Source: Marchantia polymorpha subsp. ruderalis (Eukaryota; Streptophyta; Marchantiopsida; Marchantiales; Marchantiaceae). From it: DNA of 64,000 bases. The notes beneath the pieces were generated by a model, which did not search any database, was not told where the DNA came from, and saw nothing but the letters and a program-made list of their open reading frames with translations. Location: the NCBI GenBank assembly GCA_037833965.1, contig AP031353.1:11038501-11102500 (forward strand), read 5' to 3'. Below, piece after piece: positions 35,101 to 52,744 of the stretch. A program made the translations under genes and the position numbers. Each line of letters begins with the position of its first letter. Positions within the stretch are counted from its first letter, which is position 1.

Positions 35101-35255
35101 GTCCCAAGCGTCCCACTGTGGCCTAAGCCCAAAACCCCTTGACTGTCCTCGATCCTCTGGTTTCGCGTACCGATTACTATTTACAGCTACTGCCGCGGTA
35201 CTTACTATTCAAAAATGTTTTAGTTCCGACAAAAAACAAAAAGTGGGTTACCAAA
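32112..35255 (-). mobile_element. Solo LTR E, short subfamily (TSD gtggt)
   Basis: Flanked by gtggt (32107-32111 and 35256-35260) and inserted in the ORF of D. On the minus strand it ends TTATTACA and starts TTTGGTAACCCAC, one change from the expected TGTGG. It is 3144 bp long, lacks the 1045-codon frame, and carries five TTCCAACGAG hairpin modules (about 33633, 33917, 34233, 34660 and 34955), a TTTAGGG-like tract and a TATA-like site (33075-33084). Its first about 200 bp and last about 1 kb match G in opposite orientation, which makes G and E look like inverted repeats of one element. The separate TSDs show that they are two insertions. Confidence 0.9.
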
Positions 35256-35260
35256 GTGGT

Positions 35261-36140
35261 GCGCCGGAGGGTCTGGCCCCGAGGGCCGGTGTCTCGTAGG
35301 CGGTACTTCCGCCGGCTCCTTCCCCTTCCTACGTTGGAACGGGGGTGATTCTTGCCTGTGCACAGGCGGCACGTGTGGAGGTGTCCTGTGCACAGGCGAC
35401 CTGTGCACAGGTGAGCGCCTGTGCACAGGCGGACTGCTCCTTCCCACGCGTAAGCGTAGATCCACGTCCACTTGTGTTCGCCGGTCCGCGGAGGCTCGTC
35501 CGTCCGCGGAGGCTCGTCTATGCGCAAACGGAACATCTGTCCGCATCGCACGTGGTAACTCCGGAGGCCCTTGGCCCGTAGGCGGCCTTTCTCCCGTCGA
35601 GGTTGCAGCGTGGCCCGTTGCTCCTGCGGTCGTCCGCGCTTCCTCCTGCCTCTCTGGCGACGCACTTCCTTTCTCCGTCGCAATCGTCGCCGTGTCCGCA
35701 CTGTCGGCTGGTAACACCAGTCTGCGTGCCTTCTGCTTCGGCCGGCTGTATGGCTCGCACAGCGGCCGCGGTCGAATGGGAGCAGAGGGTTCTTGATGCT
35801 GCTCCTCTTCAGACTCTTCCCTCCATCGACGCTTCCGCGGCACTCGTGCTGCAGGGGTGTGTCTCCCTTCGTCCCTCCGTCTTGATGGGGTAGAAGTTGG
35901 TGACTCCTCTACATCAGTGTCGACCTCATTCTCCCGCACATACTTCCCGGGATGGTCGATGGACAATGGCGGAAAATGTTCAAGCTCCGCCGCTGTCAAA
36001 CAATTCCGCTGTCGATAAAAATTGATGAGGAAAGGAGAAAGATGGTTTAGAGTTCCCCCCTTCTCCTCAAACGCGTGCTGTCGCATCACCCTGTGCAAGA
36101 TGCTCGCCCAGTGAATTGGAGTTCCCTCGATGACGCACTC
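35261..36140 (-). pseudogene. LTR-encoded protein of D, middle part
   Basis: The frame from HRVMRQHAFEEKGGTLNHLS to PSGPDPPAHH corresponds to residues about 255-540 of the F protein with a few substitutions. It is bounded by F at 36141 (insertion within the codons for VECVIEG) and by E at 35255. The repeated PVHRRSPVHRS segment is encoded by CCTGTGCACAGG palindromes, as in F. Confidence 0.85.
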
Positions 36141-37104
36141 TGTAATAACCCACTAAAGGCTAAAACTGCAATATAGTGGTAGAAAGGTCGAACCCACAGG
36201 GACAGAGGAACACACAGGGTATAAAGTGTCACGTTTTAACAGACTATTGAGGAGTTTGAATTCTCAGGCAACTGTCACTCCCAGAAATACTGCAAGTGTC
36301 CACTCGGAGCGCACTCGGAGGTCGCACAGTGCAGCGTAACACACACACACACACACACACCTGAAACTACAGAAACACAACCCAGAGATCCGTTAGGACC
36401 TCTACTTCAAGATTTCAGGGGGAAAGTCTCTCAAGAGTACACTCGGCAAAGCTGCGGGCAGTGACTTCCAACTCCGGCTTTTACAACACTTCCACTAGCT
36501 TGCTGCTAGTGTAGGAAACCCGGTTTGGACTGCCTACTTCGGATCGAAGTCACTCCTACGCGGTGAACAACACTCTCAACTCACAAAACACGCAGAGAAC
36601 ACAGGTCCGCACTGAAGGACTCACTGTGAAACATTCCAGTACACAACAACAGTCTATTGAAGAGTTTGAATTCTCAGGCACTTGTCATTCCCAGAAATAC
36701 TACAGGGGTTACCCTCAAGGCACCTGCTGCAGCGTAACCTGAATTTACAACCAAGGCTTACACGAAGTAGCAAAACTTCACTTTGGCATTCAGGGGAAAA
36801 ATCCCAAGGAGTACAATCAGAAAGAAACACTCGAAGGTGTAGGGGCGAAACTGTTCAAGTATCTAACTAGTCACTGGCTCTGAGCATCGGCAGTCACCCG
36901 CAGGTGCAGATCCGAACTACTCAAGTCTCTAACCAATGTACTAGCTCTGAACATTCGGCCGAAGGCCTTCAGCTACAAAATGCGGAACGCTAAGTTGTAA
37001 CTCCTCGTGCGTGGTGACAGAACTCAAGGACACAAACACGCAAAGGAAATGGGTTCCTGATCTGCACTTCGGATGGGAAAGAACCCCAGGCAAAACGCCT
37101 GGAA

Positions 37105-37115
37105 CTATTTTATAC
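37105..37115 (-). promoter_or_regulatory. TATA box of the 3' LTR
   Basis: The minus strand reads GTATAAAATAG, at the same place in all LTRs of the family (48295-48305 in F's other LTR, 30518-30528 in D, degraded at about 58223 in B). It is downstream of the LTR ORF stop (37151). The ORF therefore lies in U3, and transcription from the LTR starts after it. Confidence 0.7.
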
Positions 37116-37150
37116 CTTCTAAGTCCTAACTAGCACTACACTGCACTACG

Positions 37151-40100
37151 CTACACGCCTGCACGGAACCACGCAACACTACACTCCGCGGATCCTGTAC
37201 TACGTCTCCTGCGCGGCCGACTGCCGCGCACTAACTCCCTACCCTGCCACTCGTCCGCTCGACTACGCAGTCCCAACCGCTGCAACGCCGCGGTCACCTC
37301 CCCCTCGAGGGCGGACATGGTATCCTGTGCCTTCGACAGAAAGGCCTCGAGCTTCTTCGCTACCTTCCGCCGACTCCTACTGTCGCCTGACAACAACCCG
37401 GCTGCGCGCAATTCAAACTCACGCAGTGTGAGTTTCTCCTGCGCCTTCACTTCCCAGTGGGCGTAGCCCTTGAGACAGTGGGCGACTCGCCTCGCCGTCT
37501 CCACCTTCGTGCGATCCGCCTCCTTCCTGCGATCCTCTTCAATGGTCACTAATTGCGATTCGGCTTCAGCACGTTGCGCCCTCAATTCGCCACACTCTGA
37601 CTGCAGACTGCGGATTAATTCTTCATCCGCCTGCCGTGCGAGCTGACATTGTTCCAACAACCGCGTCTGTCGCACGAGCTCCTCTGACAAAATCCGATTC
37701 TCGGCCTGCTCAGAGTTGAGTGCTTCCTTGACCTTCACCTGCTCCTTGGTGAGCTCGCCCAGTTTCTCATCCTTCATCTTCTCGGAGTGCTTGTAGAATT
37801 TCTGATTAAGCTTGTACTGTCCCCACAAGCACTCATGCTTCTCCTTCAAGTCCCTCAACTCCTGGTCCACTCTAGCTAATAGCTTGCTGGTGTGGACTTT
37901 AGTGCGAGTCCGCCTGCGCACTAACTCGATGTAAGATCCCGGCTGGAGTGGGTCGGCGTATTTATCGACCTTGCGATCCAAGTACCGCAGCAACGGAATC
38001 ACCTGCTCAGAGAGCGCCGCCGCCGGCGCTCCAACAATTTCCTCCTCCTCCTCCTCGGTGTCTTCTGCTCCTGACATTTCTTCCGTGGAGCCTCCGTCCT
38101 CATCATCCGAGTGGAGAATTTCAGTCGCCATTGATTGCGTCGGCGACTGCCCCGAGTGGGGCTGCACGTCCTCGACGTGTGCTGCCTGCGAAGGCACGGC
38201 TGCAGCCTCGCTGCTCGTCGCCAAAATGTCTAAGGCGGAAGGCGAATGTATCCGAGCGGCATCCCCGTCGCTCGCTGGTTGATTGCCCACCGCATTCTCT
38301 CTGTCGCCGTCGTCCGTCGCCGAAGGCGATCGAGCGGAGGGTGGCTGCGCGGGGTTGGATTGCGCATCGCGCATCGAGCTTTCATCCCGCGGACAGTCAC
38401 TCCGCTCCACCGTCTGCTGCTCCCTCGATCGGTCCGTGGGGGCTGTGCCCGGCCCGTGCGCAGGCGCATTTGCCGGCGCCTTGTCCGCCGCAGGCGTAGC
38501 GCCGCGGACATCTATCGCCGAAGGCGACATGGCCGGGGGCCGCACGCCCGATGTTCCTTGGCCTATAGGCCCTACCGCCGAAGGCGCATCTATCGGCGTA
38601 CTTCCCGCCGATGGTGCGGCCTCCGCACGCTCTCTGCTCGTATCTCCTCGGCTCGAAGGCCCTGGCGCCGAAGGCGCGAATTGCGGCGCGTGGTGCGCCG
38701 GTGGGTCTGGCCCCGAGGGCCGATGTCTCGTAGGCGGTTCTTCCGCCGGCTCCTTCCCCTTCCTACGTTGGAACGGGGGTGATTCTTGCCTGTGCACAGG
38801 CGGCACGTGCGGAGGTGTTCTGTGCATAGGTGACCTGTGCACAGGCGAGCGCCTGTGCACAGGCGGACTGCTCCTTCCCACGCGTAAGCGTAGATCCACG
38901 TCCACTTGTGTTCGCCGGTCCGCGGAGGCTCGTCCGTCCGCGGAGGTTTGCCTGTGCGCAAACGGAACATCTGTCCGCATCGCACGTGGTAACTCCGGAG
39001 GCCCTTGGCCCGTAGGCGGCCTCTCTCCCGACGAGGTTGCAGCGTGGCCCGCTGCTCCTGCGGTCGTCCGCGCTTCCTCTCGTCTCTCTGGCGACGAACT
39101 TCCTATCTCCGTCGCAATCGTCGCCGTGTCTGCACTGTCAGCTGGCAACACCAGTCTGCGTGCCTTCTGCTTCGGCCGGCTGTATGGCTCGCACAGCGGC
39201 CGCGGTCGAATGGGAGCAGAGAGTTCTTGATGCTGCTCCTCTTCGGCCTCTTCCCTCCATCGCCGCTTCCGCGGCACTCGCGCCGCAGGGGTGTGTCTCC
39301 CTTCATCCCTCCGTCTTGATGGGGTAGAAGTCGGTGACTCCTCCGCATCAGTATCGACCTCGTTCTCCCGCACATACTTCCCGGGATGGTCGATGGACAA
39401 TGGCGGAAAATGTTCAAGCTCCGCCGCTGTCAAACAATTCCGCTGTCGATAAAAATTGATGAGGAAAGGAGAAAGATGGTTTAGAGTTCCCCCCTTCTCC
39501 TCAAACGCGTGCTGTCGCATCACCCTGTGCAGGATGCTCGCCCAGTGAATTGGAGTTCCCTCGATGACGCACTCCACAAAAGAGACCTGCCACAATGTGA
39601 TGTAGCAGGCGCGGTGCGGCTGCAGTAATTGCATCAGCGCCGCGGACAAAGTCCGGCGAAATCGATCTTTGTAATCACGGGTCCTGTACCCATTCTTGGT
39701 AGACCTCCCGGTCTTGAACAGCACCACAAATTGCGCTTCTTCTTGCTTGGTCACCTTGATGCTCTCGCTGTCGAAAAGGAGATGCCCTGGCATGCCAGCA
39801 CATCTTCCCAACGCCTGCGCCCAATCTTGGACTGTCCACCGGTCAACATGCGGACGCAATCCGCGCGAGGGTGGTCCCTGTGGCTCTAGCCACTCGCGCA
39901 CCATATTCGCGCAGATGTAATTCCATCCCCATAGCAAGAAATCGAGCTTTCTTGCTATTAAGCGCTCTTCGAAAGCGCGCAGCCCGTTCTGCGGCAGGCG
40001 AAGTGGCACCATCCGCAATCTGCTCGGTCTCGTCATTGCGTTCCTGGGGTTCGCTCGCCCGCTCATTCTACTTCCGCACTGTCCGCGTTTCTTTCTCTCT

Positions 40101-40288
40101 CGGCAAACTCTAATCGCTCTCAATTCCAAATCACGCGCACTCACTTCTCCCTCAATCAACAAGAAATCTCCTGAGCGACGACGACGAGAATGTTCCGCAG
40201 CCAGCAGATGGATGCGCGCAGCGCGCACAAGAGATTGGAATCGCGAATTCAAGAATGGGACGCTCTCCGCCGCCCGGTCGAAGGTCAT
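37151..40288 (-). CDS. LTR-encoded protein, 1045 codons, 3' LTR of F (function unknown)
   Basis: Open frame in U3, same sense as gag-pol. Residues 85-330 look globular: PLRLPQNGLRAFEERLIARK, LDFLLWGWNYICANMVREWL, DWAQALGRCAG, RTLSAALMQLLQPHRACYIT, LNHLSPFLINFYRQRN. Residues about 330-740 are low-complexity Pro/Arg/Ser/Ala-rich with SPVHR repeats. An acidic stretch (EDTEEEEEEIV) precedes a coiled coil over about 770-1000 (ELTKEQVKVKEAL, RSLQSECGELRAQRAEAESQ). Similarity to the diverged copy in LTR A starts at Met85 (40034-40036), so translation may begin there. No retroviral domain is recognised. Being in the 3' LTR, it lies at the 3' end of the genomic RNA and could be expressed from a subgenomic or spliced RNA. 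A second Gag-like or accessory protein is a guess. Confidence 0.75.
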   Translation of the reverse strand: MTFDRAAESVPFLNSRFQSLVRAARIHLLAAEHSRRRRSGDFLLIEGEVSARDLELRAIRVCRERKKRGQCGSRMSGRANPRNAMTRPSRLRMVPLRLPQNGLRAFEERLIARKLDFLLWGWNYICANMVREWLEPQGPPSRGLRPHVDRWTVQDWAQALGRCAGMPGHLLFDSESIKVTKQEEAQFVVLFKTGRSTKNGYRTRDYKDRFRRTLSAALMQLLQPHRACYITLWQVSFVECVIEGTPIHWASILHRVMRQHAFEEKGGTLNHLSPFLINFYRQRNCLTAAELEHFPPLSIDHPGKYVRENEVDTDAEESPTSTPSRRRDEGRHTPAARVPRKRRWREEAEEEQHQELSAPIRPRPLCEPYSRPKQKARRLVLPADSADTATIATEIGSSSPERREEARTTAGAAGHAATSSGERPPTGQGPPELPRAMRTDVPFAHRQTSADGRASADRRTQVDVDLRLRVGRSSPPVHRRSPVHRSPMHRTPPHVPPVHRQESPPFQRRKGKEPAEEPPTRHRPSGPDPPAHHAPQFAPSAPGPSSRGDTSRERAEAAPSAGSTPIDAPSAVGPIGQGTSGVRPPAMSPSAIDVRGATPAADKAPANAPAHGPGTAPTDRSREQQTVERSDCPRDESSMRDAQSNPAQPPSARSPSATDDGDRENAVGNQPASDGDAARIHSPSALDILATSSEAAAVPSQAAHVEDVQPHSGQSPTQSMATEILHSDDEDGGSTEEMSGAEDTEEEEEEIVGAPAAALSEQVIPLLRYLDRKVDKYADPLQPGSYIELVRRRTRTKVHTSKLLARVDQELRDLKEKHECLWGQYKLNQKFYKHSEKMKDEKLGELTKEQVKVKEALNSEQAENRILSEELVRQTRLLEQCQLARQADEELIRSLQSECGELRAQRAEAESQLVTIEEDRRKEADRTKVETARRVAHCLKGYAHWEVKAQEKLTLREFELRAAGLLSGDSRSRRKVAKKLEAFLSKAQDTMSALEGEVTAALQRLGLRSRADEWQGRELVRGSRPRRRRSTGSAECSVAWFRAGV

Positions 40289-41534
40289 GGTCGTCTCTTG
40301 GTCGTGAAGAACGTCTCACTTGATGGCCGCGCCGGCTGTACGCTGGAACGGTCTTCGCTCTCACGCGCGGCTTCACGCTCCGCCGTCGTCGATTAAACTC
40401 TCACGCTCGAATTGGCGGATTTGAACTCCGCGAGCGTGTCACCCTCCGGACATGGGGGCGTAGCGCCGAAGGCGAGTTTTCCGCCTTGCGCGGTACACTT
40501 GTTCGTACCGCCCCTCGGCCAATCTCCTTCTGCATTGACGCGTGTGTCCGCATGTCGGACGAAAATTCAACTCCTGCCTGTGCGCAGGCAGGGGCCTCGG
40601 CGGATTCTCCGCCGGCGCGGAACTTGAACATTCTCCTGTGCACAGGCGCTCTCCTGTGCGCAGGCGAATTCCGTCCGCGGCGCTGCGCTGGCGCGGAAGG
40701 CGTTGACCGTGGTCAGCCGTCTCCGTCCAGTCTGTCCGTTCCTTGTCTCTCCGTCGGCGCTTCCGCCGCCGCAACTTCGTCCGTCCAAGAGCGCATCCAC
40801 CCGTGCCGTCCGCACGGTCCGTACCTATTGGATTACTCTGGCGGCTCTTCCGACGTACGCTGCGCTGCGCTGGCGCGGAAGGCACCGTACACTTTCTACC
40901 TCACAAGGCGCATTTCTAGGGCCCAAGGCGGATTTCCCGCCGACGCCGAAGTGCCTGTGCACAGGCGAACGCCTGTGCGTAGGCGGACTTCGCGCCTTCC
41001 CTAACCCTACTTCGCCTGCGCACAGGCGAACGCCTTCGTCCGCGCATAGGACAAAACTTGAATCCCCCTTCCGCGTAGGCGGAATTCGCGCCGGTGGCGA
41101 AATCCTTCCGCCGGGGGCGACCGCCTCCGTTTCTTCCAGTAGCGATAACTCCCTAAGTCCTCGTTCGTTCCAAGCGTTCTTGGGCTCGTTGGAATCAGCG
41201 CGTCGAGCTCTTTCCAACGGGATCCTAACTTGGTCAAGGCGCCCGAGGGTTGACCTAATTACGGGGATTTCCCTACAGCCGCGGACGCAACCTCCGAAGG
41301 CGGGTTTTGCGCCTTGCGCCGTAGAGATCCTAACTGCGGAGCTCGCAGGGAGGGTGGTGCCTGCCCTTACTGCGGCACCCCAAATCCCAAATTCTACAAG
41401 ATCCCTTGAGAATCCCCGCGATCTTCCGGATTCACTCTGTTTTGATGTACCGAAGGCTATTTACAATGCTGCCAGGGTACAGTTTTCCAAAAATGTTTTA
41501 ATTTCCTCAAAATTGCCAAAAGTGGGGTACCACA

Positions 41535-41547
41535 TGCCCCCCTCCTC
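41535..41547 (-). promoter_or_regulatory. Polypurine tract of element F
   Basis: The minus strand reads GAGGAGGGGGGCA immediately before TGTGGTACC of the 3' LTR, 24 nt after the pol stop. This is the expected plus-strand primer position. Confidence 0.9.
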
Positions 41548-41571
41548 AATTGTGAGCGCCCACGCGAACAC

Positions 41572-44412
41572 TCACATGTGGTATTTCTTCAACCGCCACC
41601 CGTTCACTCGGGTGCCTAACAAATCGCCGGCCAGGTCCGCAAGTTGGATGGATCCATTCGGGAAAACTTCGACAACCCTGTAAGGTCCCATCCACCTTAG
41701 GTGCAGTTTGCCTGGGAATCTGGCATGCCTGCTGTCGTAGAGCAATGCCAAATCACCCGCCCGCAGGAGTACCGGTTTGATCTTTTTATCGTATCTCTCC
41801 TTTCGGTGGAGCTGGATTTTCCTGGTGCGATCTTCGGCGTCTCTTCTCCGCTCATCCAGCAGCATGACCTCCTGTAACCTGTAGAGCTGACTCTCCTCTG
41901 CGCCCATCCTCTGCAAATCCATCGTTCGATGGGTGGGTACTTCAAATTCGATTGGAAGGATCGGGTGTTGCCCATACACCAGAAAGTATGGTGTCTGTTT
42001 GGTCGTGATCTTCTCAGCTGTGCGATACGCCCATAGAGCGGCTGCTAGCTTCGTATCCCAGTCGTGAGCGTGATTCACCGTGACCTTGAGTAGTATTTTA
42101 CACAGCAGTCCATTGGACTTCTCCGTCAGTCCATTTGCCTTGGGATTGTATGGAGTAGTCTTCCGGTGCTTGATGTGGAAATACCGTGTCAGGTCTTCGA
42201 TGATCTGATTCAGAAAATGCGTGCCCCGGTCGCTGACTAGTTCTAAGGGACATCCATAGCGTGTGATGATTGACTCGAACAAGAATGCTGCCACTGTGGC
42301 AGCATCATCCCTTCTGGTGGCTCTGGCCTCTACCATTTTGGTGGCGTAGTCCGTTGCTACCAGAATGTAGCGCCTTCGTGTACTTCTAGTCACTGGTTGT
42401 ATCGGCCCTACAAAGTCAATACCCCACTTTTCGAAAGGTGCTAGAGGCATGATGGGAGTCAGGGGCCATCGTGTTGTAGGCGTCGGTCTCCCCGTCCTCT
42501 GGCAACTGTCGCACTTGCGGATGTAATCGAGAACATCCTTAAACATGGTCGGCCACCAATACCCCGCATTTAGGATCTTTGTGACCGTGTTCCTGGTGGC
42601 ATAGTGTCCACCCGCCTCCTCTGTGTGCATCGCACTCACTATTCTTGGTACTTCTGATTCCTCCAGGCATCTGCATAAGCGCTCATCCGCCATCTTCTTG
42701 AACAAAACCCCCTGCTGGAGTTGATACGGGCCTGCCTTATGAATAAAGACAGTTCGCTGTTCCAAATCCATGCCCTCGGGGCACTGGAGGGTTAACAGAT
42801 ATCGATACAGGTCGGCATAGCGGGACTCATGTCCTGCAGACAACTGAAATAACTCTTCATCTGGAAAATCGTCCACCAATTCCTCCTCTGTCGGCTGGGT
42901 CCATAATCGGGACAAGTAATCCGCATTTTCGTGGTGCACCCCTTTCCTGGTCTGGACTGTGTAGGTGAACTCTTGTAGTAACAACACCCACCTGGCGATT
43001 CGACCGGATAGGTCGGCTTTCTTGACTAGGTGTTGCAATGCGTAGTGGTCCACATGGAACACAAACTCGTAGCAGATTAGGTAGTGACGGAACTTTTTAC
43101 AGGAGTACACCATCCCCAACGCTTCTCTCTCCGTCGTGGTGTACTTCCGCTCTGCTAGAGACAGCTGTCGGCTCGCGAAGTAGATCGGGTAGTCCTTTTT
43201 GTTGTCATCCTTTTGACTCAGTACTACACCGATGGCGAATGCCGAAGTGTCAACGTAAACATGGAATGGTCGATTCCAGTCTGGACTCCTTAGTACGGGA
43301 GCAGTCGTGAGTTTCGCTTTCAGAGCTTCAAATGCTGTCTGCTGGTTCGCACCCCAAGCATAAGGCTCGTCCTTCTTCAACAACTTGGTCAGGTCCGCCG
43401 CCAGTATTGCATACATGTGTATGAATCTTCGATAGTAGCCCACATGACCCAGGAATGCTCGCAGCTCTCTTAGATTCGTGGGTGGCTCAAGCTCGAGTAT
43501 AACCTTGACCTTCTCGATGTCCACCGCAATGCCTTCTGCCGAGACCCGATGACCCAACAAAATCCCACTAGTCATGAAGAAAAAGCACTTCTCGGGATGC
43601 AGCGATAAACTGCTCTCTCTACATTTATCGAAGGTCTGCTTCAAGTGACTTAGGTGTTCAGACCGCCTCCCAAAGACACAGAAGTCATCTATGAATATCT
43701 CCAGGAACTTCCTCAGTTGTTCCTGAAAGATATTGGTCATCATCCGTTGAAAGGTGGCAGGCGCGTTGCACAGACCGAAGGGCATCTTGTGGTAGGCGTA
43801 AGTTCCCCAGTCGGTTGTGAACGTAGTTTTATCCTTGTCCTGTTCACGGATAGACACCTGATTGTAACCTGAGAACCCATCCAGGAAGCTATAACATTCA
43901 TGTCCTGCGACATGGTCTAGAATGGCATCCGTGAATGGTAACGGGTGATGATCCTTGCGTGTTGCCGCATTCAACTTCCGGAAATCCTGACACACTCGTA
44001 TCTTACCCGTCAACTTCTTGGGTACGATAACAATCGGCGACACCCACTCACTGCTGAGCACAGGATAAATAATACCAGCGCTCAAGTACTTATCTATCTC
44101 CTCTTTCACTAGCAAGGAGTACTTTGGGTTGAGGCGATACTGGCGCTGTCGTATGGGTACTGAGTCGTCCAGTAAATCGATACGGTGCTCCCCATACCGT
44201 GCAGGTATCCCCTTCATGTCCTCGATCTTCCAGGCGAAGACGTCGACATAGTGGCTAAGGAACGCCTGTACTTTCCTTAGCTCGTCTCCTCTCACTGCGC
44301 TTGATACCTTCAAGCACTTGCCGGGACTGAGTTGTACTTCATGACAGTCACTAGGGTCGACAATGCCCTCGGTGTGACTCGTCTCACTCCTTCCCAGTCC
44401 CACAGTTAATTG
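41572..44412 (-). CDS. pol: Pol of element F: RT, RNase H, integrase
   Basis: The frame follows directly after the gag-protease UAG in the same phase, so it is expected only as a Gag-Pol readthrough product. Numbered from codon GTG at 44403: RT with IFIDDF (Asp239, Asp240) and the preceding MPFGLCNAPATFQRMM; RNase H with VYVDTSAFAIGVVLSQ (Asp385) and TTTEREALGMV; integrase zinc finger His593, His600, Cys631, Cys634; integrase catalytic Asp663 (GIDFVGP), Asp725 (VSDRGTH) and Glu761, a D,D(35)E arrangement. The C-terminus ends with a GPYRVVEVFPNGSIQL-type module and no chromodomain. There is no ATG near the start, in agreement with readthrough. All key residues are present. Confidence 0.95.
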   Translation of the reverse strand, partial: QLTVGLGRSETSHTEGIVDPSDCHEVQLSPGKCLKVSSAVRGDELRKVQAFLSHYVDVFAWKIEDMKGIPARYGEHRIDLLDDSVPIRQRQYRLNPKYSLLVKEEIDKYLSAGIIYPVLSSEWVSPIVIVPKKLTGKIRVCQDFRKLNAATRKDHHPLPFTDAILDHVAGHECYSFLDGFSGYNQVSIREQDKDKTTFTTDWGTYAYHKMPFGLCNAPATFQRMMTNIFQEQLRKFLEIFIDDFCVFGRRSEHLSHLKQTFDKCRESSLSLHPEKCFFFMTSGILLGHRVSAEGIAVDIEKVKVILELEPPTNLRELRAFLGHVGYYRRFIHMYAILAADLTKLLKKDEPYAWGANQQTAFEALKAKLTTAPVLRSPDWNRPFHVYVDTSAFAIGVVLSQKDDNKKDYPIYFASRQLSLAERKYTTTEREALGMVYSCKKFRHYLICYEFVFHVDHYALQHLVKKADLSGRIARWVLLLQEFTYTVQTRKGVHHENADYLSRLWTQPTEEELVDDFPDEELFQLSAGHESRYADLYRYLLTLQCPEGMDLEQRTVFIHKAGPYQLQQGVLFKKMADERLCRCLEESEVPRIVSAMHTEEAGGHYATRNTVTKILNAGYWWPTMFKDVLDYIRKCDSCQRTGRPTPTTRWPLTPIMPLAPFEKWGIDFVGPIQPVTRSTRRRYILVATDYATKMVEARATRRDDAATVAAFLFESIITRYGCPLELVSDRGTHFLNQIIEDLTRYFHIKHRKTTPYNPKANGLTEKSNGLLCKILLKVTVNHAHDWDTKLAAALWAYRTAEKITTKQTPYFLVYGQHPILPIEFEVPTHRTMDLQRMGAEESQLYRLQEVMLLDERRRDAEDRTRKIQLHRKERYDKKIKPVLLRAGDLALLYDSRHARFPGKLHLRWMGPYRVVEVFPNGSIQLADLAGDLLGTRVNGWRLKKYHM

Positions 44413-44415
44413 CTA
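44407..44415 (-). promoter_or_regulatory. Leaky stop signal UAG CAA UUA between gag-protease and pol
   Basis: The minus strand reads GAA GAC GAA TAG CAA TTA ACT. The stop and following six bases fit UAG-CARYYA, the tobacco mosaic virus readthrough context, which uses exactly UAG CAA UUA. Gag-protease and pol share one phase across it, and no ATG opens pol. It would set the Gag to Gag-Pol ratio. Confidence 0.8.
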
Positions 44416-47244
44416 TTCGTCTTCCGGCTGAATAGCTTCCGTCTCTTCTTCTTCTTCCACCGAACAGCAGGCAACGAATCCCACGAAGTAATCGGATTCG
44501 GTACCACTGGAATCCGATCGCGCGGTCGACTCACTGTCCTCGCCCGATGTGTAACCTGCACTTGTCGATGGGGTCTCTCCTTCGTGCCTGACCCTATTCC
44601 AGGGCACCGTAATGGTTTTGGTCGGTTCCGAAGGGTGAGGAAACTTAAGGCGATGTCTTCGCCAATCACATCTGACTTGTGCACCATATAGCCATGGTCG
44701 CCCGAGCAGGACGTCATAGCCCTGCTTCATCATCGGTTGAAGGATGATATACGTCAACCGAAAGTCCGCACCCCCGATGGTTGTCTTGACATTGCGCAGC
44801 ATTCCTGCAGGCATTCTCCGCGTCTGATCCGCTAATCTCAACACACGCTTCGAGGGTTCGTATTGACTGAACCCCAAGGCTCTCGCTGTATCCTCCGTCA
44901 TTATGTTGACTCCTGATCCAGAGTCGATTGGCACTCTGCGTACACAACATCCGGCTATCTCCACATCGATCTCGGGTGGCCCTTGGTCTTCGCTCTCCAC
45001 TTGATATACTTGAGAGGATGTGGATGCGCGCGGCTTCCGCGGATGCCGTAGCGAAAGCATCAACATTCTCCGATACGTCTTATTGTCCTCCAAGAGCTGC
45101 TTGAACGTAATGTTCACTTTTCGACTCCCGAGATCTTCAACCAAGTCATAGTGGGCGCGTTGGGGCGCCGGGGTCGGCGACGCTCTGCGAGGTTCCACGG
45201 TGGCTGCCAACTTCGCCCCAAGGGAGGATGTCAGGTCTGGCCGCGGTGGGTCCTTTTGAGTGCGGATCGCTTCCTGCAACAGGTTGGCTACCTCGTTGCG
45301 GATATCCGGAGCATAGTCCCGTTTCAGTAGGCGCACTGGCTCGTCCTCGACTGCTGCCTGGGGGCGCACTGCTGGTGCCTCCCGCGTAGTCGAAGACTTC
45401 CGAGCAGGTCGCGAGTCGGACTTGCTGGATGTCTTCTCCTTTCCTTTTCCCGTCCGGTCGGCGGTTCTCCGTTCGTGCTTGCGAGTGTCACGCTCTTGCT
45501 CTTTGGATTTCTTGGAGCTACGAGTTTCGACCCGTGCGCACATAACCTCTTCAGCCGGCCATTCTTCGTCTTCGCCATCCCCGTCTGAACCTACTTCGAC
45601 CTGGTTAACTTGCACGTCCTCCTTGGCAGGAGTGTTCACAAATCGTACCACTGGCCGAGGGACTGGTGGCTGATCACACTCTGGCGCAGTGTGCCCGACC
45701 TTCTTGCAATTACTACATGTCGGAGCATAATCGTTTCGCCTTTTTGGATGGGGACACTGCGGTGAGAAGTGCCCAACTTCCCCGCAATTATAACAAGCTC
45801 GCGGTGGCGGTGGGTCAAACGTCCCTAGAGGTGCTCTCCGCCTCACCGGTACCGTAGTGGCCCGATCCACCGGAATATATCGTGGAACTTGCATTGCTGA
45901 AACCGCAGGAGGGGTAGGCACCGACTGGACGGCGTAGGCTGTCTCTTCGCTAGCCTCTCCATAGTACTGAGGGTGCTCTCCATAGTACGGTTGCGCCCAC
46001 TCTACTGCGTTGACTGGGTATGACGGCCGGGTGGTAAGGCACTCGGTGTTTGCATGTCCCACCGCCCCGCACGTAGTACACCATAAGTTCGCTCGCACTC
46101 TCCCGGGTGATTTTCGGCGATCATGCCCGCCTACCACTTGAACCTTGAGATCGGCGAAGTCCTTCACAAGGGTCTCCATCTTCGAAGCTATATCTCCCGG
46201 CGCTCTGTCCGTAGCCACTCGTCGGATGCCCTTTTTCTTCGCTGACCCATGCTTCTTCCTCTTCTTCTCCTCCTCCGACGATGAGGTTTCCTCTTCTTCG
46301 GATGAAGAACGGTTCTCGTCCGAAGACGATTCCTCCGATGACGGAGTTGTACCTCTCCGCCGTCTTCGCCCTCCTTTCGGTTTGCGCTCCTTCGACTCCC
46401 GTCTCTCTCTCCCTCTTCGGTTGAGAGTGGAAGTTTCGAAGGCTTCTGCCGATGCAATCACATCCTCAATAGTGTCGCACTTGCTGCGTCGGCAAAAAGT
46501 CTCCATCTCCCGAGTTAAACCGGTCACGTACCAATCCACAGCTTGTTGTACCGAGAAAGGGGACCCTGGTCCTGTTTTCGGTATTCTGTCGAGGAGGTCC
46601 ATAAATCTCTCAGTGTAGTCACGCAGACTCTCCTTCTTCTCTCGCTGCAAATTACGTAACTTCGTCAAAACCCGGCTGTCGTAGCCGAGCTCGCGAAAGC
46701 GACGAAGGAACTTCTCCTTCAGCTGGGCCCATGTTGTCAACCCAGTCGGATCGATGCTCTCGTGATTATACCAACTCCTCGCTTTCTTCCGCAGAAGGCT
46801 TGGAAAGATCCTTAGTCGGTCGTCGTCTGCGATCTCGCGATTGGCAATAGACACCGACTCGAATAACTTGATGTATGAATCTGCATCGTCGTCATCCCCA
46901 CTCCCTTTGTACTTCGGGTAGGAATGTTTAGTAATCGGCTGAGGTAGCCGCACATTGGCTTGTCCGTCCGCCATCAGTGTGTCTGTCGACGGTCCTCGGG
47001 CGGTCGGTTCTACTTCACTAGGCGGGTCCGTGCAAGGAATATCTAGTAGAACTGTAAGCACCAAGTTTGGTTCCGAGTCGCCGGGGGTAGGTTCCCCAAG
47101 GATGTCAGCCGAACTAGGCTTAGGTACTCTTTTTGGTGTTTTCTTGGTTTGACGCCGTGTCTCTTCCACGGCCTTCTCTGAATCTCGTCGGAACTTGCGG
47201 ACAGCTCTAGCACTTAGGTTGCTCCCGCCAGCCCCAGTCGACAT
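44413..47244 (-). CDS. gag: Gag-protease polyprotein of element F
   Basis: 943 residues, ATG at 47244. The retrotransposon capsid domain lies at about 110-270 (YPKYKGSGDDDDADSYIKLF; KARSWYNHESIDPTGLTTWA; KFLRRFRELGYDSR). An Arg/Ser/Glu-rich linker precedes three CCHC knuckles: CTTCGAVGHANTEC (about 388), CYNCGEVGHFSPQC (about 482) and CSNCKKVGHTAPEC (about 508). A retropepsin follows with DSGSGVNIM (about 772) and YDVLLGRPWL (about 845). It ends in an acidic tail at UAG 44413-44415. Its product packages the RNA and processes itself, and termination versus readthrough decides how much Pol is made. The start is supported by its position 46 nt past the PBS. Confidence 0.95.
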   Translation of the reverse strand: MSTGAGGSNLSARAVRKFRRDSEKAVEETRRQTKKTPKRVPKPSSADILGEPTPGDSEPNLVLTVLLDIPCTDPPSEVEPTARGPSTDTLMADGQANVRLPQPITKHSYPKYKGSGDDDDADSYIKLFESVSIANREIADDDRLRIFPSLLRKKARSWYNHESIDPTGLTTWAQLKEKFLRRFRELGYDSRVLTKLRNLQREKKESLRDYTERFMDLLDRIPKTGPGSPFSVQQAVDWYVTGLTREMETFCRRSKCDTIEDVIASAEAFETSTLNRRGRERRESKERKPKGGRRRRRGTTPSSEESSSDENRSSSEEEETSSSEEEKKRKKHGSAKKKGIRRVATDRAPGDIASKMETLVKDFADLKVQVVGGHDRRKSPGRVRANLWCTTCGAVGHANTECLTTRPSYPVNAVEWAQPYYGEHPQYYGEASEETAYAVQSVPTPPAVSAMQVPRYIPVDRATTVPVRRRAPLGTFDPPPPRACYNCGEVGHFSPQCPHPKRRNDYAPTCSNCKKVGHTAPECDQPPVPRPVVRFVNTPAKEDVQVNQVEVGSDGDGEDEEWPAEEVMCARVETRSSKKSKEQERDTRKHERRTADRTGKGKEKTSSKSDSRPARKSSTTREAPAVRPQAAVEDEPVRLLKRDYAPDIRNEVANLLQEAIRTQKDPPRPDLTSSLGAKLAATVEPRRASPTPAPQRAHYDLVEDLGSRKVNITFKQLLEDNKTYRRMLMLSLRHPRKPRASTSSQVYQVESEDQGPPEIDVEIAGCCVRRVPIDSGSGVNIMTEDTARALGFSQYEPSKRVLRLADQTRRMPAGMLRNVKTTIGGADFRLTYIILQPMMKQGYDVLLGRPWLYGAQVRCDWRRHRLKFPHPSEPTKTITVPWNRVRHEGETPSTSAGYTSGEDSESTARSDSSGTESDYFVGFVACCSVEEEEETEAIQPEDE

Positions 47245-47290
47245 TCACCGAGCATGGCTGCTCGTAAAAACCCCGGTGTTGACGCAACTG

Positions 47291-47308
47291 TCCCCGGCAG
47301 CGGCGCCA
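47291..47308 (-). promoter_or_regulatory. Primer-binding site of element F, Asp-tRNA type
   Basis: The minus strand reads TGGCGCCGCTGCCGGGGA, one base from the plant Asp-tRNA-complementary TGGCGCCGTTGCCGGGGA used by many Athila/Tat elements. It is 22 nt from the LTR end, an unusually long spacer that reads TAAGAAG...CTTCTT and can fold into a small hairpin. Confidence 0.9.
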
Positions 47309-47330
47309 AAAAGAAGTTGTCGGCTTCTTA

Positions 47331-50300
47331 TGTAATAACCCACTAAAGGCTAAAACTGCAATATAGTGGTAGAAAGGTCGAACCCACAGGGACAGAGGAA
47401 CACACAGGGTATAAAGTGTCACGTTTTAACAGACTATTGAGGAGTTTGAATTCTCAGGCAACTGTCACTCCCAGAAATACTGCAAGTGTCCACTCGGAGC
47501 GCACTCGGAGGTCGCACAGTGCAGCGTAACACACACACACACACACACACCTGAAACTACAGAAACACAACCCAGAGATCCGTTAGGACCTCTACTTCAA
47601 GATTTCAGGGGGAAAGTCTCTCAAGAGTACACTCGGCAAAGCTGCGGGCAGTGACTTCCAACTCCGGCTTTTACAACACTTCCACTAGCTTGCTGCTAGT
47701 GTAGGAAACCCGGTTTGGACTGCCTACTTCGGATCGAAGTCACTCCTACGCGGTGAACAACACTCTCAACTCACAAAACACGCAGAGAACACAGGTCCGC
47801 ACTGAAGGACTCACTGTGAAACATTCCAGTACACAACAACAGTCTATTGAAGAGTTTGAATTCTCAGGCACTTGTCATTCCCAGAAATACTACAGGGGTT
47901 ACCCTCAAGGCACCTGCTGCAGCGTAACCTGAATTTACAACCAAGGCTTACACGAAGTAGCAAAACTTCACTTTGGCATTCAGGGGAAAAATCCCAAGGA
48001 GTACAATCAGAAAGAAACACTCGAAGGTGTAGGGGCGAAACTGTTCAAGTATCTAACTAGTCACTGGCTCTGAGCATCGGCAGTCACCCGCAGGTGCAGA
48101 TCCGAACTACTCAAGTCTCTAACCAATGTACTAGCTCTGAACATTCGGCCGAAGGCCTTCAGCTACAAAATGCGGAACGCTAAGTTGTAACTCCTCGTGC
48201 GTGGTGACAGAACTCAAGGACACAAACACGCAAAGGAAATGGGTTCCTGATCTGCACTTCGGATGGGAAAGAACCCCAGGCAAAACGCCTGGAACTATTT
48301 TATACCTTCTAAGTCCTAACTAGCACTACACTGCACTACGCTACACGCCTGCACGGAACCACGCAACACTACACTCCGCGGATCCTGTACTACGTCTCCT
48401 GCGCGGCCGACTGCCGCGCACTAACTCCCTACCCTGCCACTCGTCCGCTCGACTACGCAGTCCCAACCGCTGCAACGCCGCGGTCACCTCCCCCTCGAGG
48501 GCGGACATGGTATCCTGTGCCTTCGACAGAAAGGCCTCGAGCTTCTTCGCTACCTTCCGCCGACTCCTACTGTCGCCTGACAACAACCCGGCTGCGCGCA
48601 ATTCAAACTCACGCAGTGTGAGTTTCTCCTGCGCCTTCACTTCCCAGTGGGCGTAGCCCTTGAGACAGTGGGCGACTCGCCTCGCCGTCTCCACCTTCGT
48701 GCGATCCGCCTCCTTCCTGCGATCCTCTTCAATGGTCACTAATTGCGATTCGGCTTCAGCACGTTGCGCCCTCAATTCGCCACACTCTGACTGCAGACTG
48801 CGGATTAATTCTTCATCCGCCTGCCGTGCGAGCTGACATTGTTCCAACAACCGCGTCTGTCGCACGAGCTCCTCTGACAAAATCCGATTCTCGGCCTGCT
48901 CAGAGTTGAGTGCTTCCTTGACCTTCACCTGCTCCTTGGTGAGCTCGCCCAGTTTCTCATCCTTCATCTTCTCGGAGTGCTTGTAGAATTTCTGATTAAG
49001 CTTGTACTGTCCCCACAAGCACTCATGCTTCTCCTTCAAGTCCCTCAACTCCTGGTCCACTCTAGCTAATAGCTTGCTGGTGTGGACTTTAGTGCGAGTC
49101 CGCCTGCGCACTAACTCGATGTAAGATCCCGGCTGGAGTGGGTCGGCGTATTTATCGACCTTGCGATCCAAGTACCGCAGCAACGGAATCACCTGCTCAG
49201 AGAGCGCCGCCGCCGGCGCTCCAACAATTTCCTCCTCCTCCTCCTCGGTGTCTTCTGCTCCTGACATTTCTTCCGTGGAGCCTCCGTCCTCATCATCCGA
49301 GTGGAGAATTTCAGTCGCCATTGATTGCGTCGGCGACTGCCCCGAGTGGGGCTGCACGTCCTCGACGTGTGCTGCCTGCGAAGGCACGGCTGCAGCCTCG
49401 CTGCTCGTCGCCAAAATGTCTAAGGCGGAAGGCGAATGTATCCGAGCGGCATCCCCGTCGCTCGCTGGTTGATTGCCCACCGCATTCTCTCTGTCGCCGT
49501 CGTCCGTCGCCGAAGGCGATCGAGCGGAGGGTGGCTGCGCGGGGTTGGATTGCGCATCGCGCATCGAGCTTTCATCCCGCGGACAGTCACTCCGCTCCAC
49601 CGTCTGCTGCTCCCTCGATCGGTCCGTGGGGGCTGTGCCCGGCCCGTGCGCAGGCGCATTTGCCGGCGCCTTGTCCGCCGCAGGCGTAGCGCCGCGGACA
49701 TCTATCGCCGAAGGCGACATGGCCGGGGGCCGCACGCCCGATGTTCCTTGGCCTATAGGCCCTACCGCCGAAGGCGCATCTATCGGCGTACTTCCCGCCG
49801 ATGGTGCGGCCTCCGCACGCTCTCTGCTCGTATCTCCTCGGCTCGAAGGCCCTGGCGCCGAAGGCGCGAATTGCGGCGCGTGGTGCGCCGGTGGGTCTGG
49901 CCCCGAGGGCCGATGTCTCGTAGGCGGTTCTTCCGCCGGCTCCTTCCCCTTCCTACGTTGGAACGGGGGTGATTCTTGCCTGTGCACAGGCGGCACGTGC
50001 GGAGGTGTTCTGTGCATAGGTGACCTGTGCACAGGCGACCTGTGCACAGGCGAGCGCCTGTGCACAGGCGGACTGCTCCTTCCCACGCGTAAGCGTAGAT
50101 CCACGTCCACTTGTGTTCGCCGGTCCGCGGAGGCTCGTCCGTCCGCGGAGGTTTGCCTGTGCGCAAACGGAACATCTGTCCGCATCGCACGTGGTAACTC
50201 CGGAGGCCCTTGGCCCGTAGGCGGCCTCTCTCCCGACGAGGTTGCAGCGTGGCCCGCTGCTCCTGCGGTCGTCCGCGCTTCCTCTCGTCTCTCTGGCGAC

Positions 50301-52739
50301 GAACTTCCTATCTCCGTCGCAATCGTCGCCGTGTCTGCACTGTCAGCTGGCAACACCAGTCTGCGTGCCTTCTGCTTCGGCCGGCTGTATGGCTCGCACA
50401 GCGGCCGCGGTCGAATGGGAGCAGAGAGTTCTTGATGCTGCTCCTCTTCGGCCTCTTCCCTCCATCGCCGCTTCCGCGGCACTCGCGCCGCAGGGGTGTG
50501 TCTCCCTTCATCCCTCCGTCTTGATGGGGTAGAAGTCGGTGACTCCTCCGCATCAGTATCGACCTCGTTCTCCCGCACATACTTCCCGGGATGGTCGATG
50601 GACAATGGCGGAAAATGTTCAAGCTCCGCCGCTGTCAAACAATTCCGCTGTCGATAAAAATTGATGAGGAAAGGAGAAAGATGGTTTAGAGTTCCCCCCT
50701 TCTCCTCAAACGCGTGCTGTCGCATCACCCTGTGCAGGATGCTCGCCCAGTGAATTGGAGTTCCCTCGATGACGCACTCCACAAAAGAGACCTGCCACAA
50801 TGTGATGTAGCAGGCGCGGTGCGGCTGCAGTAATTGCATCAGCGCCGCGGACAAAGTCCGGCGAAATCGATCTTTGTAATCACGGGTCCTGTACCCATTC
50901 TTGGTAGACCTCCCGGTCTTGAACAGCACCACAAATTGCGCTTCTTCTTGCTTGGTCACCTTGATGCTCTCGCTGTCGAAAAGGAGATGCCCTGGCATGC
51001 CAGCACATCTTCCCAACGCCTGCGCCCAATCTTGGACTGTCCACCGGTCAACATGCGGACGCAATCCGCGCGAGGGTGGTCCCTGTGGCTCTAGCCACTC
51101 GCGCACCATATTCGCGCAGATGTAATTCCATCCCCATAGCAAGAAATCGAGCTTTCTTGCTATTAAGCGCTCTTCGAAAGCGCGCAGCCCGTTCTGCGGC
51201 AGGCGAAGTGGCACCATCCGCAATCTGCTCGGTCTCGTCATTGCGTTCCTGGGGTTCGCTCGCCCGCTCATTCTACTTCCGCACTGTCCGCGTTTCTTTC
51301 TCTCTCGGCAAACTCTAATCGCTCTCAATTCCAAATCACGCGCACTCACTTCTCCCTCAATCAACAAGAAATCTCCTGAGCGACGACGACGAGAATGTTC
51401 CGCAGCCAGCAGATGGATGCGCGCAGCGCGCACAAGAGATTGGAATCGCGAATTCAAGAATGGGACGCTCTCCGCCGCCCGGTCGAAGGTCATGGTCGTC
51501 TCTTGGTCGTGAAGAACGTCTCACTTGATGGCCGCGCCGGCTGTACGCTGGAACGGTCTTCGCTCTCACGCGCGGCTTCACGCTCCGCCGTCGTCGATTA
51601 AACTCTCACGCTCGAATTGGCGGATTTGAACTCCGCGAGCGTGTCACCCTCCGGACATGGGGGCGTAGCGCCGAAGGCGAGTTTTCCGCCTTGCGCGGTA
51701 CACTTGTTCGTACCGCCCCTCGGCCAATCTCCTTCTGCATTGACGCGTGTGTCCGCATGTCGGACGAAAATTCAACTCCTGCCTGTGCGCAGGCAGGGGC
51801 CTCGGCGGATTCTCCGCCGGCGCGGAACTTGAACATTCTCCTGTGCACAGGCGCTCTCCTGTGCGCAGGCGAATTCCGTCCGCGGCGCTGCGCTGGCGCG
51901 GAAGGCGTTGACCGTGGTCAGCCGTCTCCGTCCAGTCTGTCCGTTCCTTGTCTCTCCGTCGGCGCTTCCGCCGCCGCAACTTCGTCCGTCCAAGAGCGCA
52001 TCCACCCGTGCCGTCCGCACGGTCCGTACCTATTGGATTACTCTGGCGGCTCTTCCGACGTACGCTGCGCTGCGCTGGCGCGGAAGGCACCGTACACTTT
52101 CTACCTCACAAGGCGCATTTCTAGGGCCCAAGGCGGATTTCCCGCCGACGCCGAAGTGCCTGTGCACAGGCGAACGCCTGTGCGTAGGCGGACTTCGCGC
52201 CTTCCCTAACCCTACTTCGCCTGCGCACAGGCGAACGCCTTCGTCCGCGCATAGGACAAAACTTGAATCCCCCTTCCGCGTAGGCGGAATTCGCGCCGGT
52301 GGCGAAATCCTTCCGCCGGGGGCGACCGCCTCCGTTTCTTCCAGTAGCGATAACTCCCTAAGTCCTCGTTCGTTCCAAGCGTTCTTGGGCTCGTTGGAAT
52401 CAGCGCGTCGAGCTCTTTCCAACGGGATCCTAACTTGGTCAAGGCGCCCGAGGGTTGACCTAATTACGGGGATTTCCCTACAGCCGCGGACGCAACCTCC
52501 GAAGGCGGGTTTTGCGCCTTGCGCCGTAGAGATCCTAACTGCGGAGCTCGCAGGGAGGGTGGTGCCTGCCCTTACTGCGGCACCCCAAATCCCAAATTCT
52601 ACAAGATCCCTTGAGAATCCCCGCGATCTTCCGGATTCACTCTGTTTTGATGTACCGAAGGCTATTTACAATGCTGCCAGGGTACAGTTTTCCAAAAATG
52701 TTTTAATTTCCTCAAAATTGCCAAAAGTGGGGTACCACA
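47331..52739 (-). repeat. 5' LTR of element F (5409 bp)
   Basis: Same organisation as the 3' LTR. It is longer by 15 bp, an extra CTGTGCACAGGCGAC unit near 50025-50055, and otherwise appears identical wherever I compared. Its TATA box (48295-48305) would drive the genomic RNA, whose leader is then about 960 nt of R/U5 before the PBS. Confidence 0.95.
48341..51493 (-). CDS. LTR-encoded protein, 1050 codons, 5' LTR of F (function unknown)
   Basis: Same protein as at 37151-40288 with one extra five-residue SPVHR repeat in the Pro/Arg-rich middle, caused by the 15-bp unit that distinguishes the LTRs. It lies upstream of the TATA box of this LTR, so it could be made only from a promoter in the first about 1.2 kb of the LTR or from flanking transcription. 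The 3' LTR copy lies within the body of the genomic transcript. The large plus-strand frame opposite (49473-50435) is a codon-bias shadow. Confidence 0.7.
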   Translation of the reverse strand: MTFDRAAESVPFLNSRFQSLVRAARIHLLAAEHSRRRRSGDFLLIEGEVSARDLELRAIRVCRERKKRGQCGSRMSGRANPRNAMTRPSRLRMVPLRLPQNGLRAFEERLIARKLDFLLWGWNYICANMVREWLEPQGPPSRGLRPHVDRWTVQDWAQALGRCAGMPGHLLFDSESIKVTKQEEAQFVVLFKTGRSTKNGYRTRDYKDRFRRTLSAALMQLLQPHRACYITLWQVSFVECVIEGTPIHWASILHRVMRQHAFEEKGGTLNHLSPFLINFYRQRNCLTAAELEHFPPLSIDHPGKYVRENEVDTDAEESPTSTPSRRRDEGRHTPAARVPRKRRWREEAEEEQHQELSAPIRPRPLCEPYSRPKQKARRLVLPADSADTATIATEIGSSSPERREEARTTAGAAGHAATSSGERPPTGQGPPELPRAMRTDVPFAHRQTSADGRASADRRTQVDVDLRLRVGRSSPPVHRRSPVHRSPVHRSPMHRTPPHVPPVHRQESPPFQRRKGKEPAEEPPTRHRPSGPDPPAHHAPQFAPSAPGPSSRGDTSRERAEAAPSAGSTPIDAPSAVGPIGQGTSGVRPPAMSPSAIDVRGATPAADKAPANAPAHGPGTAPTDRSREQQTVERSDCPRDESSMRDAQSNPAQPPSARSPSATDDGDRENAVGNQPASDGDAARIHSPSALDILATSSEAAAVPSQAAHVEDVQPHSGQSPTQSMATEILHSDDEDGGSTEEMSGAEDTEEEEEEIVGAPAAALSEQVIPLLRYLDRKVDKYADPLQPGSYIELVRRRTRTKVHTSKLLARVDQELRDLKEKHECLWGQYKLNQKFYKHSEKMKDEKLGELTKEQVKVKEALNSEQAENRILSEELVRQTRLLEQCQLARQADEELIRSLQSECGELRAQRAEAESQLVTIEEDRRKEADRTKVETARRVAHCLKGYAHWEVKAQEKLTLREFELRAAGLLSGDSRSRRKVAKKLEAFLSKAQDTMSALEGEVTAALQRLGLRSRADEWQGRELVRGSRPRRRRSTGSAECSVAWFRAGV

Positions 52740-52744
52740 CACTC

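What the first reader, a model, noticed from the sequence alone, without database searches (positions are those of the whole stretch)
36141..52739. A 1045/1050-codon gene carried inside both giant LTRs of an intact gypsy element, in U3
The sequence shows 5.4-kb LTRs with a long open frame in gag-pol sense that ends just before the LTR TATA box. The frame is thus in U3, placed last on the genomic RNA, like sag in the 3' LTR of mouse mammary tumour virus (a positional analogy only). LTRs normally carry no large coding frame. The predicted protein has a globular N-terminal half, a low-complexity middle and a coiled-coil C-terminus, and I cannot assign it to a family. It may be an undescribed accessory gene.
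Basis: partly seen in the sequence, partly recalled or inferred. Interest (0 to 1): 0.88.

Follow-up and report, generated by a model that had tools for sequence, protein, structure and literature searches.

The report
Accessory gene inside retrotransposon LTRs
A family of jumping genes in a liverwort carries an extra protein-coding gene inside its two long end repeats, where coding genes are normally absent, and the pattern of mutations shows that selection has preserved the protein, although what it does is not yet known.

Summary
Confirmed and extended. The window lies in a liverwort genome (Marchantia polymorpha; inferred) and holds a very young Ty3/gypsy element on the minus strand, 36141-52739: 5-bp TSD, LTRs of 5409 and 5394 bp with 0 substitutions and one 15-bp gap. 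A sense frame fills the middle of U3 and ends 36 bp before the TATA box. It is a real gene: 19 LTR copies chosen by non-coding U3 DNA hold 30 synonymous and 20 nonsynonymous variants over codons 94-487 (reached in 0 of 2000 nulls), and a copy 8-13% diverged gives dN/dS 0.30. Codons 1-93 look unconstrained in young copies and the conserved ATG is codon 94, so the protein is about 966/961 aa, not 1050/1045. Diverged LTRs (N-terminal domain 52-61% identical) hold the gene in the same place, three of them as solo LTRs with TSDs. A conserved non-coding block of about 200 bp lies some 180 bp upstream and may be its own promoter. An ORF-less, non-autonomous partner LTR lacks block and gene. Named homologues were all from Marchantia; no known domain matched. 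Best reading: a trans-acting accessory cistron in U3, laid out like MMTV sag but not shown to be related. Transcription and function are untested.

The parts
36141..52739 (-). full-length Ty3/gypsy LTR retrotransposon
   Evidence: LTR pair, gag-pol domains and TSD
47331..52739 (-). 5' LTR, 5409 bp
36141..41534 (-). 3' LTR, 5394 bp; 0 substitutions and one 15-bp gap against the 5' LTR
36136..36140 (.). target site duplication CACTC, left copy
   Evidence: letters
52740..52744 (.). target site duplication CACTC, right copy
   Evidence: letters
48341..51241 (-). U3 gene in the 5' LTR, from the conserved ATG (codon 94 of the stop-to-stop frame) to TAG, 966 aa
37151..40036 (-). U3 gene in the 3' LTR, 961 aa
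51242..51520 (-). 5' part of the stop-to-stop frame (codons 1-93), probably not coding
   Evidence: 0 synonymous and 12 nonsynonymous variants in 19 copies, 3 and 13 in 29 copies; its ATG aligned in 2 of 7 LTRs. Against: copy C gives pN/pS 0.38 for codons 10-83
51421..51620 (-). conserved non-coding block (LTR positions about 1120-1319), promoter- or leader-like; it overlaps the unconstrained start of the stop-to-stop frame
   Evidence: mean pairwise identity in 6 LTRs 0.67 and 0.58-0.59 in the two 80-bp bins from 1121 to 1280 and 0.44-0.53 in 1281-1360, against 0.00-0.36 in 961-1120 and 0.20-0.21 in 1361-1440, in three alignment modes (first seen)
40216..40415 (-). the same block in the 3' LTR
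   Evidence: by position in the LTR without substitutions
48298..48304 (-). TATAAAA, likely core promoter of the genomic RNA
47291..47308 (-). primer binding site TGGCGCCGCTGCCGGGGA (tRNA-Asp type, recalled)
41537..41547 (-). polypurine tract GAGGAGGGGGG
44413..47244 (-). gag-protease frame
   Evidence: Retrotrans_gag and zf-CCHC above, Asp_protease_2 just under the curated cut-off
41572..44412 (-). RT - RNase H - integrase frame, in phase with gag behind one TAG
32112..35255 (-). solo LTR (3144 bp, TSD GTGGT) without the gene; 98.8% identical to LTR 4401-5409, only patches elsewhere
54703..58784 (+). diverged, inverted LTR copy C with the same frame (one stop, one 1-base deletion, three in-frame indels)

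Best explanation
The long frame is an accessory gene of the retrotransposon, housed entirely in U3 as a self-contained cistron. Shown by sequence: a conserved non-coding block of about 200 bp, a variable stretch of about 180 nt, an ATG and about 960 codons under purifying selection, ending just upstream of the likely core promoter of the genomic RNA; the layout recurs in diverged subfamilies. Inferred: the block is a promoter (or a splice-acceptor region), the mRNA uses the poly(A) site of the same LTR, and the gene could therefore be expressed from the 5' LTR, the 3' LTR and even solo LTRs. Inferred more weakly: the protein is a nuclear, self-associating, trans-acting factor. It has a conserved N-terminal domain (all helix in a low-confidence model), basic NLS-like clusters (RKRR, RPKQKARR), a fast-evolving proline/serine-rich linker and a long coiled coil. 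It would act on the element's LTR chromatin or RNA, for example by activating transcription or opposing silencing. If it acts in trans, the short ORF-less partner element can do without its own copy.
For: Constraint in copies not chosen by protein similarity: of 20 loci cut from the best U3 DNA matches (40 places scored; they include both LTRs of some elements) 19 were used (L062, broken by an insertion, dropped); codons 94-487 hold 30 synonymous and 20 nonsynonymous variants, each counted once; a null keeping base and CpG context has mean 15.6 and reached 30 in 0 of 2000. Copy C: 161 synonymous changes against a null mean of 95.4, 0 of 1000, dN/dS 0.30; pN/pS 0.13-0.14 in codons 94-340. Copy A pieces: dN/dS 0.49, 0.16, 0.20, null reached in 18, 0 and 1 of 1000. 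Copy L042 against the window: 0.12 for the N part, 0.41 and 0.33 for C parts, 0.22 for its gag. In all 36 pairs of 9 copies pN is below pS in the N-terminal domain. Position: 17 of 17 loci (16 places) found with the divergent protein P0007 carry LTR sequence directly behind the gene, 13 of them to LTR position 5300 or beyond. The 5 long loci have the LTR start before it, 3 with a TSD as solo LTRs. Block; no match to it in two ORF-less LTRs. The partner's 507-bp internal part keeps PBS and PPT. Coiled coil: one helix of 166 residues.
Against: No transcript or protein was seen. Variants per site are not rarer in codons 94-487 than in non-coding U3 (0.042 against 45 of 1180 sites, 0.038); only their kind differs. 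Codons 1-93 show no constraint in young copies, and the linker little (pN/pS 0.66 for codons 341-700 in copy C). 8 of 43 scored best copies have an internal stop, and of the five long loci only L044 has a single long frame (740 codons) covering most of the gene. The N-terminal model has mean pLDDT 44.7, so no fold is known. Nuclear action rests on short basic motifs only, and the promoter role of the block on conservation only; the first 80 bp of the LTR are conserved even more (0.77), so conservation in U3 is not unique to the block.
Confidence: 0.72

Rival explanations
1. The gene has no promoter of its own; it is read from a spliced or other 3' subgenomic form of the genomic RNA, as env-like genes are, with the conserved block serving as splice acceptor and leader in the 3' LTR.
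For: The frame is last on the genomic RNA. The block contains a T/C-rich stretch in the aligned LTRs.
Against: No clear plant-type 3' splice site was noticed by eye in the block; splice sites were not scored. Solo LTRs carry the gene in the same layout, though that says nothing about expression.
Confidence: 0.3
2. The protein is a structural or replication protein of the particle (second Gag-like or RNA-packaging protein) rather than a nuclear regulator.
For: Its constraint is of the order of that of gag of the same element (0.12, 0.41 and 0.33 for three parts, 0.22 for gag); a long coiled coil suits assembly.
Against: No similarity to the element's gag in a profile comparison (probability 0.1%, shallow profile of Neff 1.85 against one sequence); no zinc knuckle or capsid match.
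Confidence: 0.25
3. The U3 gene is a captured host gene carried as cargo.
For: Capture of a promoter-plus-gene unit into U3 would explain why block and gene are both missing from ORF-less LTRs.
Against: No host gene was identified. Most homologues (57 and 89 proteins) are single-member hypothetical proteins of Marchantia, as expected of unmasked element copies. One cluster, P0055 (Mp_8g15400, 6 members), could not be placed because the genome tool did not complete.
Confidence: 0.12
4. The frame is a by-product of GC-rich, stop-poor repeats and encodes nothing.
For: LTR G+C is 0.58; frames of 315-351 codons also occur on the other strand.
Against: Shuffles reach at most 295 codons; codon-specific constraint; conserved ATG.
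Confidence: 0.02

Closest known systems
MMTV sag (superantigen frame in U3 of the LTR)
   Same: A frame in U3 of the LTR; a second U3 promoter (P2) is reported to drive it (passages of PMC9412291).
   Different: Animal retrovirus, protein acting on lymphocytes. Here a plant element, a protein with a long coiled coil and no strongly hydrophobic stretch (maximum 19-residue hydropathy 1.14). No sequence comparison with Sag was made.
Additional ORFs of plant LTR retrotransposons (Grande gene23, RIRE2, Retand TRP28/PF04195, env-like ORFs)
   Same: Extra conserved gene of unknown function in a plant gypsy element; gene23 is reported as nuclear and transcribed from its own promoter (PMC7264820, parts 1 and 2 of 3 read).
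   Different: Those are described in the internal region, most often between pol and the 3' LTR, sense or antisense; the review's main text has no 'in/within/inside the LTR' phrase. Here the gene is inside both LTRs and sense. No PF04195 match.
Lentiviral nef (recalled)
   Same: Accessory gene whose coding sequence reaches into U3.
   Different: Only overlaps U3; unrelated host. Recalled, not tested.
Non-autonomous LTR elements with long LTRs and short internal parts (recalled class)
   Same: The 3.1-kb ORF-less LTR flanks a 507-bp internal part that keeps PBS and PPT.
   Different: Its last 1009 bp (core promoter, R, U5) are 98.8% identical to the gene-bearing LTR, while U3 before that matches only in patches; the boundary falls 2 bp after the gene's stop codon.

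Membership tests
Ty3/gypsy LTR retrotransposon | pol order RT - RNase H - integrase | tested here: met
   RVT_1, RT_RNaseH, Integrase_H2C2, rve in that order
Ty3/gypsy LTR retrotransposon | LTR pair with TSD, PBS and PPT | tested here: met
Chromovirus branch | chromodomain at the integrase C-terminus | tested here: not met
   no chromodomain family among the hits of the pol frame up to E 1
Athila/Tat branch | placement in an RT phylogeny | not tested
   no reference RT sequences were fetched; a tRNA-Asp-type PBS is a recalled lead only
Retand TRP28 (PF04195) accessory proteins | PF04195 domain | tested here: not met
   PF04195 not among the hits of 5, 22 and 17 alignment members at E up to 10 (one search shows 25 of 28 families)
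Plant env-like aORFs | transmembrane segment | tested here: not met
   maximum 19-residue Kyte-Doolittle mean 1.14 in the window frame
MMTV sag-type U3 gene (works like) | complete frame in U3, sense | tested here: met
MMTV sag-type U3 gene (works like) | own U3 promoter | tested here: inconclusive
   conserved upstream block, activity unknown
MMTV sag family (member) | sequence homology to Sag | not tested
   no Sag sequence was compared; no PDB chain matched the frame up to E 1

The most novel reading that the evidence does not exclude
The LTR itself is a gene: a promoter-plus-cistron unit in U3 that is doubled at every integration and survives the usual loss of elements to solo LTRs, so that solo LTRs form a large dispersed pool of stand-alone, selected accessory genes acting in trans on autonomous elements and used (or evaded) by ORF-less partners.
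Probability: 0.45. Interest if true: 0.85.

Novelty: new variant of a known kind. Interest (0 to 1): 0.72.

Why it matters
LTRs are taken to be regulatory DNA. A large selected gene wholly inside U3, with a conserved element upstream, shows that they can be coding units, that some 'giant' LTRs may be giant because they hold a gene, and that annotation looking only at internal regions would overlook such genes. The host is a genetic model plant, so expression and function are directly testable.

Tried and rejected
Protein family, PDB sequence and profile searches gave no believable relative. Inj_translocase (0.043) is far under its curated score; others (Extensin_1 0.00019, SCNM1_acidic 0.0013, SKG6 0.0016, CENP-K 0.0018) match one or two members each, for which scores were not shown, and were taken as low-complexity or coiled-coil matches. 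The N-terminal AlphaFold model (pLDDT 44.7) was judged too poor for a fold search and the C-terminal one is mainly one long helix, so no fold search was run. Homology to the element's own gag: none. The search with P0005 did not complete. The first dN/dS script compared two loci in the wrong orientation, and included the broken L062; both tables are superseded. Copies are ranked by protein similarity, which biases dN/dS (pooled pN/pS 0.24 in 29 copies); avoid this. The first look at upstream conservation used two LTRs cut short, which understates identity before the block; one search repeats it with the sequence from each LTR start (L030 as far as held) and the block stands. Literature: four searches on aORFs or ORFs in LTRs/U3 and two on Marchantia/liverwort retrotransposons; judged from listings, titles and abstract starts, and passages of the papers opened, none describes this gene; the library holds open-licence papers only.
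Full report
What is there. The window is G000:C4:11038501-11102500 of a 241-Mb, 9-contig assembly. A predicted protein of Marchantia polymorpha subsp. ruderalis (P0007) matches this genome at 100% over residues 340-638 of 638, and the v7.1 assemblies of that species are about 240 Mb with eight autosomes and one sex chromosome (passages of PMC13078153), so I take the host to be M. polymorpha (inference). On the minus strand, 36141-52739 is a complete Ty3/gypsy element: LTRs of 5409 and 5394 bp with 0 substitutions and one 15-bp gap, TSD CACTC, a PBS, a PPT, gag-protease and RT-RNase H-integrase. It sits inside an older solo LTR of the same family (29556-54702, TSD CGAGC).

The frame. In each LTR a sense frame of 1059 or 1054 codons ends with TAG 36 bp before TATAAAA. 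In 500 dinucleotide shuffles the longest sense frame was 295 codons.

It is a gene. Among 43 scored genome copies (of 13746 first-look candidates) 35 have no internal stop. As those were ranked by protein similarity, I repeated the test on copies chosen by non-coding U3 DNA (40 places scored, 20 loci cut, both LTRs of some elements among them). L062 was dropped for an insertion; in the other 19, codons 94-487 hold 30 synonymous and 20 nonsynonymous variants (null mean 15.6; 0 of 2000 reach 30). Sixteen of the 20 have no stop in the first 487 codons, three have one (one of these before codon 94), and the last is L062. In the window itself copy C gives dN/dS 0.30 (0 of 1000 nulls) and the three pieces of copy A 0.49, 0.16 and 0.20 (null reached in 18, 0 and 1 of 1000). 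Against one further copy (L042) the N part gives 0.12, C parts 0.41 and 0.33, and gag of the same element 0.22. Among nine copies, eight of them diverged from the window, all 36 pairs have pN below pS in the N-terminal domain. Against this, the density of variants in codons 94-487 (0.042 per site) is no lower than that of non-coding U3 (45 of 1180 sites).

Where it starts. Codons 1-93 have 0 synonymous and 12 nonsynonymous variants among the 19 copies, and 3 and 13 among 29 copies; copy C gives a milder 0.38 for codons 10-83, so older constraint there is not excluded. In an alignment of seven LTRs the ATG at codon 94 is present in six (not in L045), the ATG at codon 10 in two. I place the start at 51241 (966 aa) and 40036 (961 aa).

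The position is shared by diverged copies. Loci found with the divergent protein P0007 carry LTR sequence directly behind the gene in 17 of 17 cases (L029 and L030 are one place), 13 of them to LTR position 5300 or more. The five longest also show the LTR start; one of these, L042, is close to the window (93% identical in its N part). L041, L043 and L044 are solo LTRs of 4134, 4570 and 4898 bp with 5-bp TSDs (ends and TSDs; lengths by subtraction); for L045 no TSD was found. In L036 and L042 gag follows the LTR. The N-terminal domains of eight diverged loci are 52-61% identical to that of the window. Of the five long loci only L044 keeps a single long frame, of 740 codons, over most of the gene.

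A conserved element upstream. In six LTRs (window plus five diverged ones), mean pairwise identity is 0.67 in LTR 1121-1200, 0.58-0.59 in 1201-1280 and 0.44-0.53 in 1281-1360, but 0.00-0.36 in 961-1120 and 0.20-0.21 in 1361-1440 (three alignment modes). The first 80 bp of the LTR (0.77) are the only better conserved stretch of U3 outside the coding part, and 81-240 stands at 0.47-0.52. This block of about 200 bp, some 180 bp before the ATG, is what a promoter or leader could look like; its role is inferred.

An ORF-less partner. 32112-35255 is a solo LTR with TSD GTGGT that matches the gene-bearing LTR at 98.8% from 2 bp after the gene's stop codon to the end, and only in patches before it; its longest frame is 159 codons. 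The block has no match in it or in the older ORF-less LTR 26384-29533. The U3 of this LTR recurs elsewhere in a row of eight with 3677-bp spacing, and a 701-base stretch from that row shows a 507-bp internal part that keeps the PBS and PPT of the autonomous element. Such elements must be moved in trans (inference), which fits, but does not prove, a trans-acting U3 protein.

The protein. A conserved domain (about residues 94-335 of the frame; all-helical in a model of mean pLDDT 44.7, so not trusted), basic clusters RKRR and RPKQKARR, a fast proline/serine-rich linker, a conserved segment around LLRYLDRK, and a long coiled coil (one helix of 166 residues, block pLDDT mostly 69-98). No believable Pfam or PDB relative, no similarity to the element's gag. 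57 and 89 homologous proteins were found; those that bear an organism name are from Marchantia.

Comparison with what is known. [quoted passage not shown]) describes them in the internal region; its main text has no phrase for an ORF in the LTR. Retand elements carry an antisense PF04195 gene (passages of PMC11963269). MMTV has sag in U3, driven by a U3 promoter P2 (passages of PMC9412291). This gene is therefore laid out like sag and belongs in kind with plant accessory ORFs, but no sequence kinship to either was found (PF04195) or tested (Sag).

Verdict. A real, selected, U3-borne accessory gene (high confidence); a separate cistron with its own promoter (moderate); a nuclear trans-acting factor (a guess from motifs, about one in three).

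Noticed in passing
44415-44407 (minus): gag-PR and pol are in one frame, separated by TAG CAA TTA, which fits the leaky-stop context CAR YYA described for TMV (PMC2754532 passages). Pattern HRRCAATTAACTGTGGGACTGG has 540 hits in the own genome; the 100 listed are all TAG. TAGCARYTANNNGTNGG has 819 hits against 12 for the reversed control. Suggests conserved readthrough; that paper mentions readthrough candidates among rice gypsy elements.
   Followed up: partly
32112-35255; L066: ORF-less LTR of a short non-autonomous partner (507-bp internal part), eight in a row with 3677-bp spacing at C7:15102084-15129417.
   Followed up: partly
G000:C8:2021538 and 2040622; C6:25303354 and 25322443: Two LTR pairs spaced 19.08-19.09 kb instead of about 11.2 kb, perhaps a variant with a longer internal region.
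   Followed up: no
G000:C7:7664184-7833815: Eight copies of the U3 in a row, mostly 21.85 kb apart, with one gap of 37.4 kb, perhaps a large tandem array.
   Followed up: no
26384-29533 (plus): Older ORF-less LTR in the opposite orientation, 77-87% identical to the outer parts of the gene-bearing LTR.
   Followed up: partly
23798-24790 (minus): 330-codon frame that looks like the RT/RNase H end of a Ty1/copia element (motifs recalled).
   Followed up: no
protein P0055 (Mp_8g15400): A named gene model with the C-terminal part of this family and 6 member sequences, a possible domesticated copy; its place could not be searched.
   Followed up: no
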